16,664 nucleotides of DNA from Kiloniellales bacterium. GTDB lineage: Bacteria > Pseudomonadota > Alphaproteobacteria > Kiloniellales > JAKSDN01. Positions 1-14,902 of the stretch are shown in pieces. A program made the position numbers and the translations under genes. The notes under the pieces are model-generated. The model was not told the DNA's origin and searched no databases. It worked only from the letters and a program-made list of their open reading frames with translations. Numbering within the stretch: the stretch's first letter is position 1; every line of letters begins with the position of its first letter. The stretch spans positions 1-16,664 of the forward strand of contig JAKSDN010001453.1 in NCBI GenBank assembly GCA_022360075.1. Reading direction: 5' to 3'.

Positions 1-1840
1 CGCCGTCAGCTACGATGCCGGCAGCGGCCGGGCGACGCTCTACCAGGAAGGCGTGGTCAATCGCTACAACTCGATCTGGGGCAAGGTCGTGCCGGCCGAC
101 TTCCGCTCCCACGTACGCGAGACGCTACGCTTCCGCGCCCGTAACGCGCCAGAGACGCCCTTCCTGATCGGCGGCAGCCGGGATTGGCACGAGGTGCGCG
201 GCCATTTCGTCTCCCAGACCTACAACGGCAAGGTGGACCGGCCCGGAATCTTCGACCGCCCGCTCTCGCGCGAGGAAATCGACAGGATCCGCGTCGGCGA
301 GGCGCCGCCTGCCGAGGGCCTGGTCGCCTACTGGGACAGCAGCAAGGGCTACACGGACGAGGGCATCGGCGACCGGGTCGTCGATAGCGGGCCGCACGGC
401 CTCGACGCGCAGGGCGTCAACCGGCCGGTGCGCGCGCAGACCGGTTGGAACTGGGGCGGCCACAACGACTGCTTCCGCCTGGCACCGGAGGAATACGGCG
501 GCATCGAGTTTCACGAGGACATGATCGTCGACTGCGCCTGGAACGAGACCCGGCGCATGACGGTGCCGGAAGGCCTGAAGAGCGGCGTCTACGCGATCCG
601 GCTACGCGCCGGCGACGGTCACGGCCTGGGCGAGGAGTACCTCGTCTTCTTCCTGCGGCCCGCCACGCCCAAGGCACCGGTCGTGTTTCTCGTGCCCACG
701 GCGAGCTACCTGGCCTACGCGAACGAGCGCTTGTCCTTCGACGCCCAGATCGCCCAGCCCATCACCGGCCAGACGCCGATCGTCTCCGCGGTCGATGTCG
801 AGATGTATCAAACGCCGGACTTCGGCCTCTCCACCTACGACAGCCATGCCGACGGCGCCGGCGTCTGCTACAGCTCCTACAAGCGCCCGATCATCAACAT
901 GCGGCCCAAGTACCGCATCACCTCGATGGGCATCACCTGGCAGTTCCCTGCCGATCTCAGCATCGTCGGCTGGCTCGAGCGCATGGGCTACGACTATGAG
1001 ATCCTCACCGACGAGGATCTCGACCGGGAGGGCATCGAGGCGCTCAAGCCCTACAACTGCGTGATTACCGGCACCCACCCCGAGTACTACTCGGAGCGCA
1101 TGCTGGACGCGACCGAGGACTACCTGGCCGACGGCGGGCGGGTGATCTACATGGGCGGCAACGGCTACTACTGGAACGTCGCCTTCCGCCGCGACGAGCC
1201 CTGGTGCATGGAGGTGCGCAAGCTCGACTCGGGCATGCGCGCCTGGAACGCGCGGCCGGGCGAACACTACATGCAGACCAACGGGATGCGCAGCGGCCTG
1301 TGGCGGGCGCTGGCCCGCGCACCGCAGAAGACTGTGGGCGTCGGCTTCATCAGCCAGGGCTTCGAGGTCTCGGTGCCCTTCCGGCGCATGCCCGATAGCT
1401 GGCACCGCACGGTCGACTGGATCACCGAGGGCATCGAGGGCGAGATCATCGGCGACTTCGGCCTGGCCCACGGCGGCGCGGCCGGCATCGAGATCGACCG
1501 CTACGACCTCAGGCTCGGCACCCCGCCCCACGCCAAGATCATCGCCTCCTCGGGCGGGCACCCGGACAACTATATGCTGGTTTGCGAGGAGATCCTCTAC
1601 GCCCATCCCGGCATGACCGGGACCTACGACTATCGCATTCGCGCCGACATGGTCTATTTCACCACGCCCAACGACGGCGCCGTCTTCTCGAGCGGCTCGA
1701 TCGCCTTCGGCCAGGCCCTGCCATGCAATGACTTCAACAACAACGTCTCCAAGCTCCTGAAGAACGTCGTCGACGCCTTCGCGAAGCCGGGCAAGCTCCC
1801 GGGCGGCGCCTGGGTCGCCAAGGAGAAGCAGTGGCGCTAG
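1..1840 (+). CDS. N,N-dimethylformamidase large (beta) subunit-like protein, 5' end outside window
   Basis: The reading frame is open from the first full codon (base 2) to TAG at 1838-1840, so the gene begins upstream; the GTG at 53 is internal. About 613 residues are visible, against roughly 760 for DMFase large subunits. The start reads like the end of a LamG/concanavalin-type domain, with a YNGKVDRPGIF motif and the following DRPLSREEI. The DMFA2 C-terminal region follows, with VAYWD, GPHGL, APEEYG, FHEDM and VPEGLKSGVYAIRL blocks, then a glutamine-amidotransferase-like fold. DMFase hydrolyses N,N-dimethylformamide to dimethylamine and formate using a mononuclear iron bound by Tyr and Glu side chains. 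Candidate ligand-bearing motifs here are THPEYYS (about nt 1072-1092), GGNGYYW (about 1155-1175) and GGHPDNY (about 1552-1572). The last has Asp where a Glu might be expected, so the substrate may be another N-substituted amide. No small subunit is visible. The last codons abut the miniature repeat that shares the stop codon. Confidence 0.85.
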   Translation, partial: AVSYDAGSGRATLYQEGVVNRYNSIWGKVVPADFRSHVRETLRFRARNAPETPFLIGGSRDWHEVRGHFVSQTYNGKVDRPGIFDRPLSREEIDRIRVGEAPPAEGLVAYWDSSKGYTDEGIGDRVVDSGPHGLDAQGVNRPVRAQTGWNWGGHNDCFRLAPEEYGGIEFHEDMIVDCAWNETRRMTVPEGLKSGVYAIRLRAGDGHGLGEEYLVFFLRPATPKAPVVFLVPTASYLAYANERLSFDAQIAQPITGQTPIVSAVDVEMYQTPDFGLSTYDSHADGAGVCYSSYKRPIINMRPKYRITSMGITWQFPADLSIVGWLERMGYDYEILTDEDLDREGIEALKPYNCVITGTHPEYYSERMLDATEDYLADGGRVIYMGGNGYYWNVAFRRDEPWCMEVRKLDSGMRAWNARPGEHYMQTNGMRSGLWRALARAPQKTVGVGFISQGFEVSVPFRRMPDSWHRTVDWITEGIEGEIIGDFGLAHGGAAGIEIDRYDLRLGTPPHAKIIASSGGHPDNYMLVCEEILYAHPGMTGTYDYRIRADMVYFTTPNDGAVFSSGSIAFGQALPCNDFNNNVSKLLKNVVDAFAKPGKLPGGAWVAKEKQWR

Positions 1841-1970
1841 GGGTTCAATTCCGACACTTGAGTCCGATGAAATTGGATCAAGTGTCGACCAGAATTGGAC
1901 CCAAACTAAAGAGTTACCTAGTGGGGCGGCCCGACATTCCGGGATCGGAATGTCGGAGTCGAACCACTAG
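1837..1970 (+). mobile_element. Miniature inverted-repeat element (MITE-like), copy 1
   Basis: A 134 bp non-coding element begins and ends with CTAG. The inward-reading ends match over about 20 nt with 3 mismatches (consensus TAGTGGTTCRAYTCCGACA). Two perfect 10 bp stem-loops lie inside: 1852-1861 with 1878-1887, and 1931-1940 with 1947-1956. A third CTAG lies at 1918-1921. A near-identical copy (about 5 differences) is inverted at 7410-7542. TA at both edges with terminal inverted repeats fits a MITE mobilised by an IS630/Tc1-type transposase (TA duplication); that assignment is inference. The left TAG is also the stop codon of the upstream DMFase-like gene. The hairpins could end its transcript, although no T-run follows. 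Confidence 0.82.
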
Positions 1971-1993
1971 GGGTTGTTTGCCTCGTGATGCAG

Positions 1994-2082
1994 TCATTGC
2001 GAGCCGGCGTCAGCCGGCGCGGCAATCCAGGGCCACCGCTCCGGCGGCAGCCGTCTGGATTGCTTCGCGCCGCTTGCAATGA
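1994..2082. repeat. REP-type dispersed palindrome
   Basis: A long imperfect inverted repeat. The left arm (1994-2030) begins TCATTGCGAGCC and ends GGCAATCCAG. The right arm (2055-2082) begins CTGGATTGCTTCG and ends TTGCAATGA. The arms pair around a GC-rich centre (2031-2054), and the left arm carries an extra GCCGGC-type side hairpin. This layout is common among dispersed intergenic repeats in proteobacterial genomes. It lies between the miniature element and the end of the DUF1127 gene, with no coding content. Confidence 0.75.
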
Positions 2083-2118
2083 CACGCTCTGAGGTTGCGA
2101 CTCCTTCTTTGAAGCCAA

Positions 2119-5814: not shown

Positions 5815-6097
5815 TGTAAGAGGGTCAAAAGTCCGGGCGAGAGTAGATCGGCGTTCTGCGACAGGAACGACAAGAGGCTTGGAGCGCTGGACAAACAGCC
5901 TGCGTGCTTCGAGACGCGCTCTGTCGAGCGCTCCTCAGCATGAGGTCCGATCTTAATGCCATCAAAAAACCTGTCCTCATGCTGAGGAGCCCCAAAGGGG
6001 CGTCTCGAAGCGCGCACGCCAGCACTGCAGCCAAGACCGGAAAGCGCCACCTTCGCTCCTTACTGCCAACACGGCCCGGCCTTTTGACTCTCTTACA
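5815..6097. repeat. 283 bp segment bounded by 24 bp inverted repeats
   Basis: Bases 5815-5838 (beginning TGTAAGAGGGTCAAAAG) are the reverse complement of 6074-6097 at 22 of 24 positions. The enclosed DNA is non-coding and carries the nested palindrome at 5906-6011. This could be a small non-autonomous element, a decayed IS, or a long-range hairpin. No target duplication of 4 or 8 bp is evident at the edges, so mobility is not shown. Confidence 0.55.
5906..6011. repeat. Nested palindromic repeat, copy A
   Basis: Left arm 5906-5945 and right arm 5975-6011 pair at their outer ends (GCTTCGAGACGC with GCGTCTCGAAGC) and inner ends (CTCCTCAGCATGAGG with its complement). The arms contain side hairpins GCGCTC-TGTC-GAGCGC and GCCCC-AAA-GGGGC. 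The central loop carries TCTTAATGCCATC (5951-5963). The same architecture, inverted, recurs at 14708-14814. Confidence 0.8.
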
Positions 6098-6120
6098 AGA
6101 GTCCCCCGTAAGAATCTGAA

Positions 6121-6234
6121 TTCTTTAAAGAAAGCTCGGATCGTTAACGATCGTTCGAGCCGGCGCTTTTTTGACACACTGCGCATGAGGCAGACTCGCC
6201 ATAGTCTCTTTCGGGGTCCGATAGCCCACGGAGG
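6121..6234 (+). promoter_or_regulatory. AT-rich leader with palindromes, TTGACA box and ribosome binding site
   Basis: Upstream of the small gene at 6241 are two perfect palindromes, TTCTTTAAAGAA (6121-6132) and GATCGTTAACGATC (6139-6152). The second sits inside GCTCG...CGAGC. A T-run leads into TTGACA (6171-6176), which could be a -35 box. The best -10 candidate, CATAGT, lies about 23 nt on, too far for a standard sigma70 promoter. GGAGG (6230-6234) is placed 6 nt before the ATG. The ribosome binding site is clear; the promoter is tentative. Confidence 0.4.
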
Positions 6235-6240
6235 CTCTCG

Positions 6241-6570
6241 ATGCGTGGCTACATCCTGCCGACCGTCATCGCCCTGCTCCTCGCCGCTCCACTGCTCTGG
6301 CGGCTCGACACAGAGCTGACCGCGCCCAATCAGGCCGTCGGCGTGGTTCCATCGGAAGAAGCCGAGCTAAAGCCAGACACCGCGAATTCGGCATCGCCGC
6401 AAGGCATTCGCCTTCTGGCGGCCGTGCCCCTCACCGAGACGCCGTCGAAGGTCCAGGTCGAGCTGGACATGCTCGCTCCCCAGCCGGATCGCGAGAAGCG
6501 CGGGCTTTGGTTCGTCGGTTTCAGCCCTTCGGGGCCGAGCGGCTACGCCACGATCCTGGAGTCCCAGTAG
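6241..6570 (+). CDS. Small membrane-anchored or secreted hypothetical protein
   Basis: A 109-residue protein of no recognised family. Residues 1-20 (MRGYILPTVIALLLAAPLLW) form one hydrophobic segment after a single Arg, consistent with a signal anchor or an uncleaved signal peptide. The rest is polar, rich in Pro and Glu, and expected in the periplasm. I see no cysteine lipobox or catalytic motif. It is probably a real gene: GGAGG sits 6 nt before the ATG, its own AT-rich leader precedes it, and it ends just short of the convergent SDR gene (9 nt between stop codons). A small stem, CGCCT-N6-AGGCG (6571-6586), spans that junction. Function unknown. Confidence 0.65.
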   Translation: MRGYILPTVIALLLAAPLLWRLDTELTAPNQAVGVVPSEEAELKPDTANSASPQGIRLLAAVPLTETPSKVQVELDMLAPQPDREKRGLWFVGFSPSGPSGYATILESQ

Positions 6571-6579
6571 CGCCTCGAC

Positions 6580-7380
6580 CTAGGCGAACTTCGCCGTAAG
6601 CCCGCCGTCCACGATCAGCTCCGTGCCCGTGACGTACTTGGCCTCGTCCGAGGCCAGGAACAGCGAGGCGTAGGCGACGTCCCAGGCGTCGCCCATGCGG
6701 CCCATCGGGCACTGCGCGTCGCGCACCTGCTTCATCTTCTCGACATCGCCGTCGCCATAGACGTCGCGCAGCGGCTCGACGATCATCGGCGTGTCCATCA
6801 GGCCGGGCAGCACGCTGTTGGCGCGGATGCCCTTGTCCGCATACTCCAAAGCGATGGCGCGGGTGAAGGGCAGCACGGCGCCCTTGCTGGCGTAGTAGGA
6901 GATGTAGGACACCCCGGTCCAGCGGATGCCGGCGACGGAGGAGATGTTGACAATCGCGCCGCCACCCTGGCGCGCCATCACCGGCAGGACGTGCTTGCAG
7001 GTGAGGAACATGGATTTGAGGTTGACCGCCATGACGCGGTCCCAATCGGCCTCGCTGAGCTCGACCGGCCCGCCGACCTCAGCGATCCCGACATTGTTGT
7101 GCAGCACGTCGATGCGGCCGAAGCGCTCGAGACAGGCCGCGACCATGGCCTCGACCTGATCGGCCTTTGAGACGTCGGTCTCCTGCACGACCGCCGTGCC
7201 GCCCTCCTCGGCGATGATGCCGGCGGTCTCCTCCGCAGCGGGGCGCTTCAGATCGACGCAAAAGACCTGGGCCCCCTCCCGCGCGAAGAGCACCGCCGCC
7301 GCCTTGCCGTTGCCCCAGCCCGGCCCGACCGAGCCCGCGCCGGTCACGATCGCCACCTTGTCCTTCAATCGCTCGCCCAT
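6580..7380 (-). CDS. SDR-family NAD(P)-dependent oxidoreductase
   Basis: A 266-residue classical short-chain dehydrogenase, probably cytosolic. Visible features are the cofactor glycine motif TGAGSVGPGWGNG (residues 13-25, with an insertion relative to the usual TGxxxGxG), the NNVG motif (95-98), catalytic Asn120 (AVNLKS), the NISS serine (147-148) and YYASK (Tyr162, Lys166), then the PG motif LPGLMDTPM. Acidic Asp43 after the second strand favours NAD over NADP. The start is ATG 7380, preceded by a GA-rich AAGGGAAGG; an in-frame GTG at 7395 is the alternative. Such enzymes oxidise alcohols or 3-hydroxyacyl compounds; the substrate cannot be read. Miniature element copy 2 begins about 30 bp upstream of its start and may affect its promoter. 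Confidence 0.93.
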   Translation of the reverse strand: MGERLKDKVAIVTGAGSVGPGWGNGKAAAVLFAREGAQVFCVDLKRPAAEETAGIIAEEGGTAVVQETDVSKADQVEAMVAACLERFGRIDVLHNNVGIAEVGGPVELSEADWDRVMAVNLKSMFLTCKHVLPVMARQGGGAIVNISSVAGIRWTGVSYISYYASKGAVLPFTRAIALEYADKGIRANSVLPGLMDTPMIVEPLRDVYGDGDVEKMKQVRDAQCPMGRMGDAWDVAYASLFLASDEAKYVTGTELIVDGGLTAKFA

Positions 7381-7409
7381 GGCCCTTCCCTTCACCTAGC
7401 TCCCAGCCG

Positions 7410-7542
7410 CTAGTGGTACGACTCCGACATTCCGATCCCGGAATGTCGGGCCGCCTCACTAGGTAACTCTTTGTTTGGGTTCAATTCTGGTCGACACTTG
7501 ATCCAATTTCATCGGACTCAAGTGTCGGAATTGAACCACTAG
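7410..7542 (-). mobile_element. Miniature inverted-repeat element (MITE-like), copy 2
   Basis: A 133 bp element, the reverse complement of copy 1 (1837-1970), with four substitutions and one single-base gap. It keeps the CTAG edges, the imperfect ~20 nt terminal inverted repeats and both perfect stem-loops. It lies between the SDR start and the DUF488 stop. The CTAG at 7539-7542 contains the DUF488 TAG stop (complement 7539-7541), as copy 1 does for the DMFase-like gene. With copy 1 it forms 96%-identical inverted repeats about 5.4 kb apart, which could recombine and flip the DNA between them. Confidence 0.82.
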
Positions 7543-8081
7543 AGCAGTTCGCCCTGCGCCGCCGGATAGTGCACCACACCGTCGGCCTGCAACTCGGCAC
7601 CCGCATTGATCTGGGCCGGCTCCATTCGATTCTCCGCGACGATGTGCACGACCTCGTGGCCCAGTCCGAGCAGGTGGTCGGTGATGATCTGGCGATGGCA
7701 GCGCTGCCAGGCCGCCTCGGCGCACATAACCGCGCAGGTCTTCTCTTCGGCCAACGCCACGAGCGCCGCCAGCGCGCTGCGAAAGGCCGGCGTCAGGGCG
7801 TAGTCCGCGTAGTTGCGGAAGCTCGCGTTGCGCCAGAAGCCGTTGGGGCTCGGATAGCCGAGATCCTGCTTGTTGCGCCGGCCGCCGAGATCGCGGGCGT
7901 GGCGATAGGCGATGCCGGCCGGCTTCAGCGTGTCGGGCAAGGTCTCGATGTTGAACTGCGGGTTGGTGCGCGAGCGCGGAAAGGAGCGCACGTCGACGAG
8001 GACCTCGATCCCGGCGTCGCGAAGCAGGGCCAGCAGTTCCTCGGCGCTGCGCGTGGAATGGCCGACGGTGTAGAGAGTCAT
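7539..8081 (-). CDS. DUF488 family protein
   Basis: A 180-residue protein with the DUF488 signatures: YTVGHSTRS at the start, VDVRSFPRSR (about residues 29-38), RDLGGRR, YADYA, and the MCAEAAWQRCHRQII block (about 118-132) with conserved Cys and His, ending HYPAAQGELL. The family is widespread and its function unproven. The conserved Arg, Cys and His residues suggest phosphate or nucleotide chemistry, but I would not assign one. The ATG at 8081 lacks an obvious ribosome binding site. The TAG stop is shared with the edge of miniature element copy 2. The C-terminal wording looks like a natural family end, so little or nothing seems lost. It is divergent from tam with 76 bp between starts. Confidence 0.92.
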   Translation of the reverse strand: MTLYTVGHSTRSAEELLALLRDAGIEVLVDVRSFPRSRTNPQFNIETLPDTLKPAGIAYRHARDLGGRRNKQDLGYPSPNGFWRNASFRNYADYALTPAFRSALAALVALAEEKTCAVMCAEAAWQRCHRQIITDHLLGLGHEVVHIVAENRMEPAQINAGAELQADGVVHYPAAQGELL

Positions 8082-9978: not shown

Positions 9979-10494
9979 ATGACGGCAAATCCGAGCAACG
10001 GACTCACTCTGCGCGACCTGGACGGCGACGATCTCGCCTGGCTGCTAGCGCTCAACCAGGCCTGCCTGCCGGCGGTCAGCAGCCTCGATGCGACATCCTT
10101 GACCCGCCTGCTGGCCGAGGCGTCACTGGCCCGCCTGGCCGCGCTCGATGACGAACGGCTCGGCGCGCTGATCGCCTTCCGACCGGGCGCCGACTACGGC
10201 AGCGACAACTACCGCTGGTTCTGCGCGGCCTACGACGACTTTCTCTACATCGACCGCGTGATGGTGAGCGGCGCGGCGCGCGGCCGCGGGGTGGGTGCCG
10301 CGCTCTACGAGGACGCCGCCGAGACGGCCCAACACCTCGGCGTGCCGCGCCTGACCTGCGAGGTGAACGAGGAGCCGCCGAACCCGGGCTCCATGCGCTT
10401 TCACGAGCGGCTCGGCTTTGAGGCCGTCGAGAGCCGTCCCAGCGCCGGGGGCCGCAAGCGGGTGGCCATGCTCGCCCGGCCGATCGGTCTCTGA
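9979..10494 (+). CDS. GNAT-family N-acetyltransferase (COG3818-like)
   Basis: A 171-residue acetyl-CoA-dependent acyltransferase, cytosolic. The GNAT core is visible: the strand FLYIDRVMVS (88-97), the pyrophosphate-binding loop RGRGVG (101-106) followed by helix ALYEDAAETAQ, strand LTCEVN (125-130), and NPGSMRFHERLGF (135-147), where the loop and Tyr/Phe end of the fold lie. Together with the NYRWF...YDDF block this resembles the COG3818 group of predicted acetyltransferases. The start is ATG 9979, with GAGG and GAGGG purine tracts just upstream. The frame is open 5' of it, but that part overlaps the divergent permease start region. It lies 30 bp ahead of the oxidoreductase and is likely co-transcribed. 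Acceptor unknown. Confidence 0.87.
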   Translation: MTANPSNGLTLRDLDGDDLAWLLALNQACLPAVSSLDATSLTRLLAEASLARLAALDDERLGALIAFRPGADYGSDNYRWFCAAYDDFLYIDRVMVSGAARGRGVGAALYEDAAETAQHLGVPRLTCEVNEEPPNPGSMRFHERLGFEAVESRPSAGGRKRVAMLARPIGL

Positions 10495-10524
10495 CCGGCC
10501 CGCCATGAGAAGCGGGGGCGCAGC

Positions 10525-11931
10525 TTGAACTACGACGCTCTCTTCGCGCCCTTCGACGGCCAGTCGGTGCGCGTGGGCTTGGTCGGGGCCGGCGAGTTCG
10601 GGGCGACGCTGCTGGCTCAGGCGCGATCGATTGAGGCGCTCGCGATCTGCGCGGTCTGCGAGCGGCAGCCGCAACGCGCCGTCAACGTCCTCAAAGCGAG
10701 CGGCTACGACCCGGCCCGGGTCGCCGTCTGCGGCCGTCTCGCCGAGGCGCGGACGGCTCTGACCGGCGGCAAGATCGCCGTCGTCACCGACGGCCGGCTG
10801 CTGGCCGAGCTCGAACTCGACATCGTCGTGGAGGCCACGGGCGACGCCGAAGCGGCGACGGTCACCGCGCTGGCCGCGATCGAGGCCGGCAAGCACGTCG
10901 CCATGGTCACCAAGGAAGCCGACTGCGTGATCGGCCCTGGCCTGCAGGCCAGGGCCGCCGCCCAGGACCGCGTCTTCACCAGCGTCGACGGCGATCAGCC
11001 GAGCCTGCTGATCGGCCTTGTAAGCTGGGCGCGCCGCCTCGGCCTCGATATCGGAGTTGCCGGCAAGTCGAGCGAGTACGATTTCGTCTTCGATGCCGAG
11101 ACCGAGCGGGTCACCTGCCGCGACCGACAGGTCGAAGCCAAAGGCCTTGGCAGACTGTGGTCGCCTGTACCGGACGAGCTTCGGGAGGCCGCAGAACGAC
11201 GTGCACAGATCCTGGACGGCCTGCCGACGCGCTCGGTCTCGGATCTTTGCGAGCTTTGCGTGGTCGCCAACGCGACCGGACTGCGGCCCGACACGGCGGC
11301 CTTGCATGCGCCGATCCTGCGCACACAGGAAGTGCCGAGCCTGCTGCGGCCTGCCGCAGAGGGCGGCCTGATGGCCGGCCATGGCGTGCTCGACATCTTC
11401 AACTGCTTGCGCCAAGCCGACGAGATCAGCTTTGCCGGTGGAGTCTTCCTGGTCGTCGCCTGCGGCGATCTCGAGGCCTGGCGTGTGCTCGGCGCCAAGG
11501 GCATTCCCATCGCCCACGACGGCCGCCACGCGCTGCTCTACAACCCGCAGCACCTGCTGGGGGTCGAGGCGCCGATCACGCTGTTGACCGCGGCGCTGCT
11601 GAGCCAGCCGAGTGGGGCGCTCGCGGCGAGGCCGGTCTGCGATCTCGCGGCCCAGACCGCGATCGATCTCGAGGCGGGCCAGGTGCTGAGCGTCACCGAC
11701 GCGCACAAGCACGAGGTCGGCTCGCTGCGGCCCTTGCTCCTGCCATCCGCGCCCCTGGCCGGTAGCAGCCCGATTCCGTACTACATGGCGGTCGGCTGCC
11801 GTCTTGCGGAGGCGGTGCCGGCGGGCACCACGCTCACGCTCGATATGGTCGAGGCGCCGGCGACCTCGGCCCTGTGGGATGAGCGGCGGCGACAGGATGC
11901 GCTGTTCTGTGTGAAAAGCGTAGAAGGCTAG
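10525..11931 (+). CDS. Homoserine dehydrogenase-like oxidoreductase with C-terminal SAF domain
   Basis: A 468-residue protein. Residues about 14-150 form a Rossmann domain with VRVGLVGAGEFG (GxGxxG at 21-26), the VEATGDAEA and GKHVAMVTKEAD strands typical of homoserine-dehydrogenase-type NAD(P) domains. A middle catalytic region follows (about 150-390). The SAF domain lies in about 415-455 (YYMAVGCRLAEAVPAGTTLT). Proteins of this architecture are often annotated as SAF-domain or DRL-like oxidoreductases, or wrongly as FlgA; they tend to occur in polyol or sugar-acid catabolic clusters. The substrate is not identifiable here. The start is TTG 10525, with GGGGG (10514-10518) about 6 nt upstream; an ATG at 10505 is out of frame. 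It follows the GNAT gene by 30 bp. The long opposite-strand ORF is a shadow. Confidence 0.85.
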   Translation: MNYDALFAPFDGQSVRVGLVGAGEFGATLLAQARSIEALAICAVCERQPQRAVNVLKASGYDPARVAVCGRLAEARTALTGGKIAVVTDGRLLAELELDIVVEATGDAEAATVTALAAIEAGKHVAMVTKEADCVIGPGLQARAAAQDRVFTSVDGDQPSLLIGLVSWARRLGLDIGVAGKSSEYDFVFDAETERVTCRDRQVEAKGLGRLWSPVPDELREAAERRAQILDGLPTRSVSDLCELCVVANATGLRPDTAALHAPILRTQEVPSLLRPAAEGGLMAGHGVLDIFNCLRQADEISFAGGVFLVVACGDLEAWRVLGAKGIPIAHDGRHALLYNPQHLLGVEAPITLLTAALLSQPSGALAARPVCDLAAQTAIDLEAGQVLSVTDAHKHEVGSLRPLLLPSAPLAGSSPIPYYMAVGCRLAEAVPAGTTLTLDMVEAPATSALWDERRRQDALFCVKSVEG

Positions 11932-11974
11932 GAAGATAAAGCTGTCTTGCGTGGGAGAAGGACGCATTTCTTTG

Positions 11975-12116
11975 GTCCGCTCCGCGGACGCCCCCCACCC
12001 GGCGCTATGCGCCGGCCTCCCCCTCGAGGGGGGAGGCGTAGCTGTTGCGGTGCCGATTTGATCCCCTCCCCCCTTGAGGGGGAGGGCTAGGGAGGGGGGC
12101 CGGCGCGGAGCGCCGA
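11975..12116. repeat. Cluster of GC-rich hairpins, arms of a larger inverted repeat
   Basis: Consecutive stem-loops lie between two genes: GTCCGC-TCC-GCGGAC (11975-11989), CCGGCGC-TAT-GCGCCGG (11999-12015), CCTCCCCCT-CGA-GGGGGGAGG (12016-12036), a near-identical C-run/G-run hairpin with a TTGA centre (12063-12086), and CGGCGC-GGA-GCGCCG (12101-12115). The left three and right two are roughly inverted images of each other about 12050. This resembles dispersed intergenic repeats of GC-rich bacteria. It may stop or dampen read-through from the SAF oxidoreductase gene into the amidohydrolase gene. Confidence 0.7.
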
Positions 12117-14650: not shown

Positions 14651-14902
14651 AGGGGGGCAAATTAGGGGCCAAGGCGCCTCCTTCATCGCTGCAAATCCAC
14701 TGTGCGTCCTTCGAGACGCGCCCTGTCGGGCGCTCCTCAGGATGAGGTAAATCGTGGATGGCATTAAGAAATGTCCTCATCCTGAGGAGCCCGCGCTAGC
14801 GGGCGTCTCGAAGGGTTCGGTACGAACCGCGCGAAGCGCTTGGCGGTCGGTTCTCCAACCACCGAAGCGCCCGGCGTCGGGGCAGCTCTGAACCGCCGCC
14901 CC
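14651..14902. other. Intergenic region between binding-protein and permease genes
   Basis: No gene. It holds the nested palindrome (14708-14814), then a perfect hairpin GGTTCG-GTA-CGAACC (14814-14828). An open frame from 14840 leads into the permease but is read as non-coding because the membrane protein's natural start is at 14903. The structures would be in the operon mRNA and may set the binding protein:permease ratio. Confidence 0.6.
14708..14814. repeat. Nested palindromic repeat, copy B
   Basis: Two 40 nt arms (14708-14747 and 14775-14814) pair at the outer ends (CCTTCGAGACGC with its complement) and inner ends (CTCCTCAGGATGAGG with its complement). Side hairpins are GCGCCC-TGTC-GGGCGC and GCCCGC-GCTA-GCGGGC. 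The loop carries GATGGCATTAAGA (14757-14769), the exact reverse complement of the loop motif of copy A, so this copy is inverted relative to copy A. Confidence 0.82.

What the first reader, a model, noticed from the sequence alone, without database searches (positions are those of the whole stretch)
1837..1970. Both copies of a miniature element sit inside a TAG stop codon and rebuild it
Copy 1 (1837-1970) starts within the TAG of the DMFase-like gene and copy 2 (7410-7542) within the TAG of DUF488. If TA is the duplicated target, the empty site would read C-TAG in both cases. The element's first base is G, so TA plus G restores TAG after insertion. Both copies have the same end facing the gene. 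This would let the element land at a gene end at no cost and add two hairpins right after the stop, perhaps as a portable terminator or 3' stabiliser. Only two copies are seen, and the empty sites are reconstructed, not observed.
Basis: partly seen in the sequence, partly recalled or inferred. Interest (0 to 1): 0.72.

Follow-up and report, generated by a model that had tools for sequence, protein, structure and literature searches.

The report
CTAG-targeting double-hairpin element on stop codons
A small mobile-looking DNA element made of two hairpins inserts at the rare four-letter site CTAG, which sometimes is the end of a gene's stop codon, so it can land on a stop codon and leave the protein unchanged.

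Summary
Two 96%-identical double-hairpin elements start inside the TAG stops of a DMFase-like and a DUF488 gene. Neither protein is shortened: 120 of 120 and 104 of 120 listed homologues end at the same residue.

The element belongs to a 133-170 bp family, mostly in Hyphomicrobiales. Of 154 full-length copies examined, 119 have CTAG at the left edge, 127 at the right. A real empty site exists: 8 genomes of the Pleomorphomonas group end fliQ in an uninterrupted C-TAG; P. oryzae carries the element in that codon.

34 of 154 copies lie exactly on a stop, against 57 of 477 other CTAG sites (p = 0.003). Leaving gene interiors out, the excess is 1.2-fold (p = 0.39) or 1.5-fold (p = 0.035), depending on how possibly interrupted genes are treated. 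CTAG targeting explains most or all of it. Orientation is unbiased (18:16). There is no T-tract, no convergent-gene bias and no G-T over A-C preference, so a terminator or RNA role is not supported. The stems covary strongly.

Best reading: a non-autonomous, CTAG-targeted mobile palindrome; C-TAG stops are a tolerated site class. The mobilising enzyme was not found.

The parts
1837..1970 (+). copy 1 of the double-hairpin element, CTAG to CTAG; its left edge is the TAG stop (1838-1840) of the DMFase-like gene
   Evidence: sequence, end pattern, fold
1841..1902 (+). copy 1, hairpin 1
   Evidence: predicted fold
1917..1971 (+). copy 1, hairpin 2 (predicted pairing reaches one base past the element), with an inner CTAG at 1918-1921
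   Evidence: predicted fold; CTAG positions
7410..7542 (-). copy 2 of the element; its left edge (7542 side) is the TAG stop of the DUF488 gene
   Evidence: sequence, end pattern, fold
7477..7538 (-). copy 2, hairpin 1 (approximate limits)
   Evidence: fold and alignment to copy 1
7410..7462 (-). copy 2, hairpin 2, from the inner CTAG 7459-7462 to the outer CTAG 7410-7413
2..1840 (+). DMFase-like gene (5' end outside the window), stop on copy 1
   Evidence: ORF; many listed homologues are named N,N-dimethylformamidase by a source; 120 of 120 listed end at the same residue
7539..8081 (-). DUF488 gene, stop on copy 2
   Evidence: ORF; listed homologues carry PF04343; 104 of 120 end at the same residue

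Best explanation
The element is a non-autonomous mobile DNA palindrome, like a MITE, built from two inverted, related hairpins joined by a short linker. It inserts at CTAG. Insertion turns C-TA-G into C-TA-[G...C]-TA-G, so a CTAG stands at both edges. CTAG is depleted in these genomes, and its sites outside gene interiors are intergenic or are amber stops preceded by C. When the CTAG is such a stop, the element's own first base restores TAG in frame and the protein does not change, so the insertion can survive. Shown: the family, the CTAG edges, an observed empty C-TAG stop, preserved protein ends for both window genes, covarying stems, tandem and nested copies sharing CTAG. Inferred: TA (rather than all of CTAG) as the duplicated core, an enzyme acting in trans, and loss of insertions inside genes as the reason for most of the stop share.
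For: Of 154 full-length copies, the left edge is CTAG in 119, the right in 127, both in 104. fliQ: of 14 genomes searched the junction was read in 11; 8 have an uninterrupted TTC-TAG, P. oryzae has the element there, two have other inserts. A stop on an edge in 34 of 154 (32 TAG; 2 TAA, where the element's inner base is changed, inferred from the edge letters), other CTAG sites 57 of 477; spanned by a gene 7 of 154, with a gene running into the element a further 32, against 186 of 477 control sites inside genes. CTAG 504 seen against 1156 expected by the maximal-order Markov estimate. Chelatococcus (G047) has 85 matches, some partial, and head-to-tail arrays of period 165 sharing one CTAG. Stems, 49 unselected representatives: 92.9% of cells paired, 24 of 49 pairs with changes on both sides, 0 of 500 shuffles as high.
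Against: No autonomous partner was found: PF13358 in 3 of 8 genomes, PF01797 in 1 of 8, neither in Chelatococcus; PF01609 is in 8 of 8, but none of the 30 of 36 places fetched has these ends except a nested insertion. The genomes are drafts and other transposase families were not sought. The central TA is the least conserved part of the edges (T 136 and A 140 of 154 left; T 139 and A 144 right). Two viral-contig copies have CTCG and CGAG edges. Other orthologous sites are not clean CTAG: LacI TAA, TAG, TAG, TGA, TGA; at the L007 site 1 of 5 gapped alignments reads CTAG; the L218 relative does not; the L191 site reads TGA in both relatives.
Confidence: 0.82

Rival explanations
1. Stop codons are a target in their own right: the element is guided to gene ends, beyond its taste for CTAG.
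For: 34/154 against 57/477 of all other CTAG sites, p = 0.003; 34/115 against 57/291 if genes running into the element are treated as interiors, p = 0.035. In the window's subtype 6 of 11 copies lie on stops against 28 of 143 others, p = 0.015; without the window pair 4 of 9, p = 0.09.
Against: 34/147 against 57/291, p = 0.39, if only spanning genes are left out; 0.062 in the other treatment without the window copies. No orientation bias, 18:16. The subtype test was not planned beforehand.
Confidence: 0.15
2. A portable terminator or 3' RNA stabiliser kept at gene ends for its RNA hairpins.
For: Very stable hairpins directly after the stop; REPs act on 3' ends in E. coli (passages in PMC5082802). 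One of four sub-helices, H1 outer, has more G-T than A-C (25 vs 11, p = 0.029 uncorrected).
Against: No terminator-like site. Over all stems G-T and A-C are equal, 73 vs 70, p = 0.87. Neighbour orientation is like background: tandem 90, divergent 26, convergent 19 of 135, against 691, 176 and 176 of 1043.
Confidence: 0.1
3. Site-specific recombination of a circular element at a shared CTAG core, without true target duplication; arrays arise because each copy offers the same core.
For: Tandem arrays share one CTAG and copies nest at edges of copies and of another repeat.
Against: Edge data cannot tell it from TA duplication; inverted-repeat ends fit an ordinary transposase better. No circle or recombinase was looked for.
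Confidence: 0.2

Closest known systems
GTAG-tagged REP elements (PMC3733652; abstract start and passages seen)
   Same: Repeated palindromes whose termini, the paper says, often provide the TAG stop codon to flanking ORFs.
   Different: REPs are 20-40 bp with a GTAG or CGTC tag and often go with RAYT genes; this element is 133-170 bp, two hairpins, CTAG at both edges, and a Y1 transposase was found in only 1 of 8 genomes.
Bacterial MITEs
   Same: Short, no transposase gene, inverted ends, target duplication, many copies.
   Different: No parent insertion sequence found; each half is itself a covarying hairpin, usually with CTAG at its inner end.
RIME elements of rhizobia (named in PMC2573895, passages seen; the two-palindrome, about 108 bp description is recalled)
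   Same: Intergenic repeats of the same bacterial order, by recall also made of two palindromes.
   Different: Sequences not compared; the original paper was not held.
IS711/IS6501 and Bru-RS1 in Brucella (PMC3163539, passages seen)
   Same: TA duplication at YTAR, which includes CTAG; one insertion into a palindromic repeat.
   Different: IS711 is a full insertion sequence of 842 bp; Bru-RS1 is 103 bp and its sequence was not compared.

Membership tests
MITE | short, multi-copy, no transposase gene | tested here: met
   133-170 bp; 154 full-length copies; 85 matches in one genome
MITE | inverted terminal repeats | tested here: met
   both ends of both window copies fit one 22-nt pattern
MITE | target duplication with an observed empty site | tested here: met
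   fliQ locus: one CTAG empty, two when filled; one locus
MITE | shares ends with an autonomous element | tested here: inconclusive
   none found among the transposase loci fetched from 8 draft genomes or in the loci held; three families sought, 6 of 36 PF01609 places not fetched
IS630-derived element | DDE_3 transposase (PF13358) in the genome | tested here: not met
   absent at E 1e-8 from 5 of 8 genomes, including Chelatococcus with 85 matches
REP/REPIN | RAYT (Y1 transposase, PF01797) present | tested here: not met
   1 of 8 genomes
REP/REPIN | 20-40 nt unit with GTAG or CGTC tag | tested here: not met
   hairpins of about 55-80 nt, edge CTAG
intrinsic terminator | GC-rich hairpin followed by a T-tract | tested here: not met
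   no terminator-like site at either window copy; other copies not scanned
RIME | sequence similarity to RIME1/RIME2 | not tested
   reference sequence not available here

The most novel reading that the evidence does not exclude
C-TAG stop codons are shared safe harbours for a whole guild of unrelated two-hairpin elements in Alphaproteobacteria. The elements share not sequence but a plan (CTAG, hairpin, linker, hairpin, CTAG), so one machinery may recognise hairpin shape plus CTAG. At one fliQ stop, three genomes of the Pleomorphomonas group carry three different hairpin inserts, and in Chelatococcus a second repeat with GAGC ends has a like plan and target.
Probability: 0.3. Interest if true: 0.7.

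Novelty: new variant of a known kind. Interest (0 to 1): 0.48.

Why it matters
It gives a simple rule for how mobile DNA can spread in compact genomes with little damage: a target that is rare in genes and, at gene ends, can be the stop codon itself. It explains most or all of the repeats that sit exactly on stops without invoking a regulatory role. It also offers natural pairs (empty and filled fliQ) for testing what a hairpin placed on a stop codon does to translation and mRNA decay.

Tried and rejected
The window's own genome is not held, so the family was sought in public genomes. No close relative of the window was found: the DMFase-like gene is at most 58% identical in samples of 385 and 22 genomes, some in both, and a DNA search of an order of 10 genomes gave 65% matches to the gene. 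Of 43 genomes in the order of G001 only G001 itself has a match to the element. Plasmids hold no match to copy 1; phages hold none to the viral-contig copy; 10 plasmid records match the Chelatococcus copy, 5 over at least 80% of it. Rfam: no match at gathering score. Apparent autonomous elements in L326 and L208 proved to be nested insertions: L326 is IS1634 by profile, L208 looks like IS3 by eye. My first gene caller misread a gene in the window (antisense ORF 10123-11967); it gave 30 of 154 stops against 29 of 297 control sites, p = 0.005, and 30/116 vs 29/181, p = 0.05. It was replaced. That control in turn held some unmasked element copies (58 of 491; p = 0.002 and 0.38); the re-masked control is used here. 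The neighbour background and the CTAG expectation were not re-masked or freed of overlapping loci. A first covariation count (44 of the 49 representatives plus four copies added by hand, three after I had noticed changed arms) gave 94.1% paired and 21 of 49 pairs; the unselected set is used instead. A scan for other CTAG-bounded palindromes gave 8 candidates of 70 pairs, 6 with a stop on an edge; one is a re-fetched copy of this family (L404), two in L074 overlap, and the one in the window may be a chance pairing of GC-rich repeats, so it is only a hint. Literature searches were seen as listings, with passages of PMC2267715, PMC3163539, PMC12306157, PMC2573895, PMC5082802 and PMC3733652. In what I saw, only PMC3733652 speaks of repeats providing TAG stops, and none describes this family. 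On this check the confidence of the best explanation went from 0.85 to 0.82 and that of stop targeting from 0.10 to 0.15, because of the p = 0.035 treatment.

Full report
What is there. Two copies of a 133-134 bp element lie in the window in opposite orientation, identical in 129 of 134 columns. All four ends fit one 22-nt pattern, which I wrote from them. Each copy folds as two long hairpins with a short linker between. The left CTAG of copy 1 holds the TAG stop of the DMFase-like ORF 2-1840, the left CTAG of copy 2 that of the DUF488 gene 7539-8081.

Was a protein end changed? No. All 120 listed DMFase homologues end at the same residue, as do 104 of 120 DUF488 homologues. Both stops stand at the natural gene end.

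A family. A scan of one genome per species with GTGGTTCRAYTCCGACAYT, which leaves the flanking CTA free, gave 98 stretches, by record title mostly Hyphomicrobiales. Some are chance matches, for example in Paenibacillus. The common form is 166-170 bp with the plan CTAG-hairpin 1-linker-hairpin 2-CTAG. The window's shorter subtype was found in two MAGs, G001 and G002, and as a partial match in a third, G003 (alignment). Chelatococcus asaccharovorans (G047) has 85 matches, some partial. Head-to-tail arrays with a period of 165 bp share one CTAG between units.

Target. Copies whose edges ran off the held sequence were dropped uncounted; of the 176 left, 154 are full length and the 22 others were left out. 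One pair of the 154 (L032 and L220) is probably the same place fetched twice; neither is on a stop. Edges are CTAG in 119 (left), 127 (right), 104 (both). The outer C and G are kept in 148 of 154 each, the inner G in 151 and inner C in 152, while the central T and A are the least kept (136 and 140 left, 139 and 144 right). Single outer changes number 7 (CTAG/CTAA 3, ATAG/CTAG 2, GTAG/CTAG 1, CTAG/CTAC 1), single inner ones 3; most other departures touch the central TA. This is compatible with a duplicated TA flanked by the element's own G and C, but does not prove it.

A real empty site. Flanks of four Pleomorphomonas elements, joined without the element, were searched in 14 genomes of that genus group. 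At fliQ the junction was read in 11: 8 read TTC-TAG straight through, P. oryzae has the element in that codon, and two carry other hairpin inserts that start at the same CTAG (L360, L361). Three genomes gave no readable fliQ match. Other sites are less tidy. LacI orthologues end in TAA, TAG, TAG, TGA and TGA; at the L007 site 1 of 5 gapped alignments reads CTAG; the L218 relative does not; the two Chelatococcus relatives of the L191 site have TGA.

Stop codons. With a codon-frequency gene caller of my own that recovers the expected window genes but was not validated elsewhere, 34 of 154 elements have an edge exactly on a stop, 18 at the left and 16 at the right edge (p = 0.86). The offset histogram has 34 at zero and at most 6 at any other offset within 60 nt. 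As control I took the 477 distinct CTAG sites outside elements in the same 132 loci and in 40 further stretches: 57 are stops, 186 lie inside genes, 234 are intergenic. Elements exceed all CTAG sites (p = 0.0034). If the 7 elements spanned by a called gene are left out, they do not exceed the CTAG sites outside genes (34/147 vs 57/291, p = 0.39). If the 32 into which a called gene runs are left out too, they do mildly (34/115 vs 57/291, p = 0.035; 0.062 without the window copies). An insertion often breaks the frame of the gene it hits, so the truth probably lies between. CTAG targeting plus loss of insertions inside genes thus accounts for most or all of the stop positions. CTAG itself is depleted, 504 against 1156 expected. 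The window subtype is higher, 6 of 11 against 28 of 143 (p = 0.015), but 4 of 9 (p = 0.09) without the pair that prompted the question.

Function of the hairpins. On the 49 representatives of the 155-180 bp type (at most 90% alike), 92.9% of stem cells pair, 24 of 49 pairs change on both sides in at least one copy, and no measure was reached in 500 shuffles. Related sequences can exceed shuffles; slid structures, which keep relatedness, give 27-43% paired and 14-34 double-change cells against 109. G-T and A-C cells are equal (73 vs 70, p = 0.87), as expected if the palindrome matters as DNA, or if the arms correct each other, rather than as RNA; the outer part of hairpin 1 alone leans to G-T (25 vs 11, p = 0.029 uncorrected). 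No terminator-like site lies at either window copy. Neighbouring genes are oriented as in the background.

Mobilisation. PF13358, PF01797 and PF01609 were sought in 8 draft genomes. No transposase locus fetched had these ends as its own. Two transposase genes between element ends are nested insertions: an IS1634 at an inner CTAG (L326) and an IS3-like one in an array (L208). The enzyme is unknown.

Prior art. [quoted passage not shown] TA duplication at YTAR is described for IS711 (PMC3163539, passages). What appears new, within the searches named, is this family, its CTAG target with an observed empty stop, the CTAG control that explains most or all of the stop share, and the use of one stop by different elements.

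Noticed in passing
L360, L361, L362 (at the fliQ stop): The same fliQ stop codon carries three different hairpin inserts in three genomes of the Pleomorphomonas group, while eight others are empty.
   Followed up: partly
L411, and 31 further places listed for G047: A second repeat of about 100 bp with CTAG-GAGC ends and two palindromes, many copies in Chelatococcus; one of our elements sits at its edge (L190).
   Followed up: partly
L001:6837-7005: In a viral contig the element lies inside an ORF that reads through it (487 aa, 5976-7439); by eye it resembles a DNA methylase gene.
   Followed up: no
L001:7773-7941 and the L106 copy: Copies whose edges read CTCG (left) and CGAG (right), complementary to each other; not explained by the CTAG rule.
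   Followed up: no
L326:1202-3239: An IS1634-family insertion at an inner CTAG of an element copy, with CTAG on both sides.
   Followed up: partly
window 5885-5963 and 14687-14814: Another repeated palindrome (CTTCGAGACGC...CTCCTCAGGATGAGG), with an inverted pair at 14708-14814.
   Followed up: no
window 1992-2083 and 11989-12112: Two further palindromic stretches: one beside copy 1 (by eye), and a GC-rich inverted repeat shortly after the stop at 11931.
   Followed up: no
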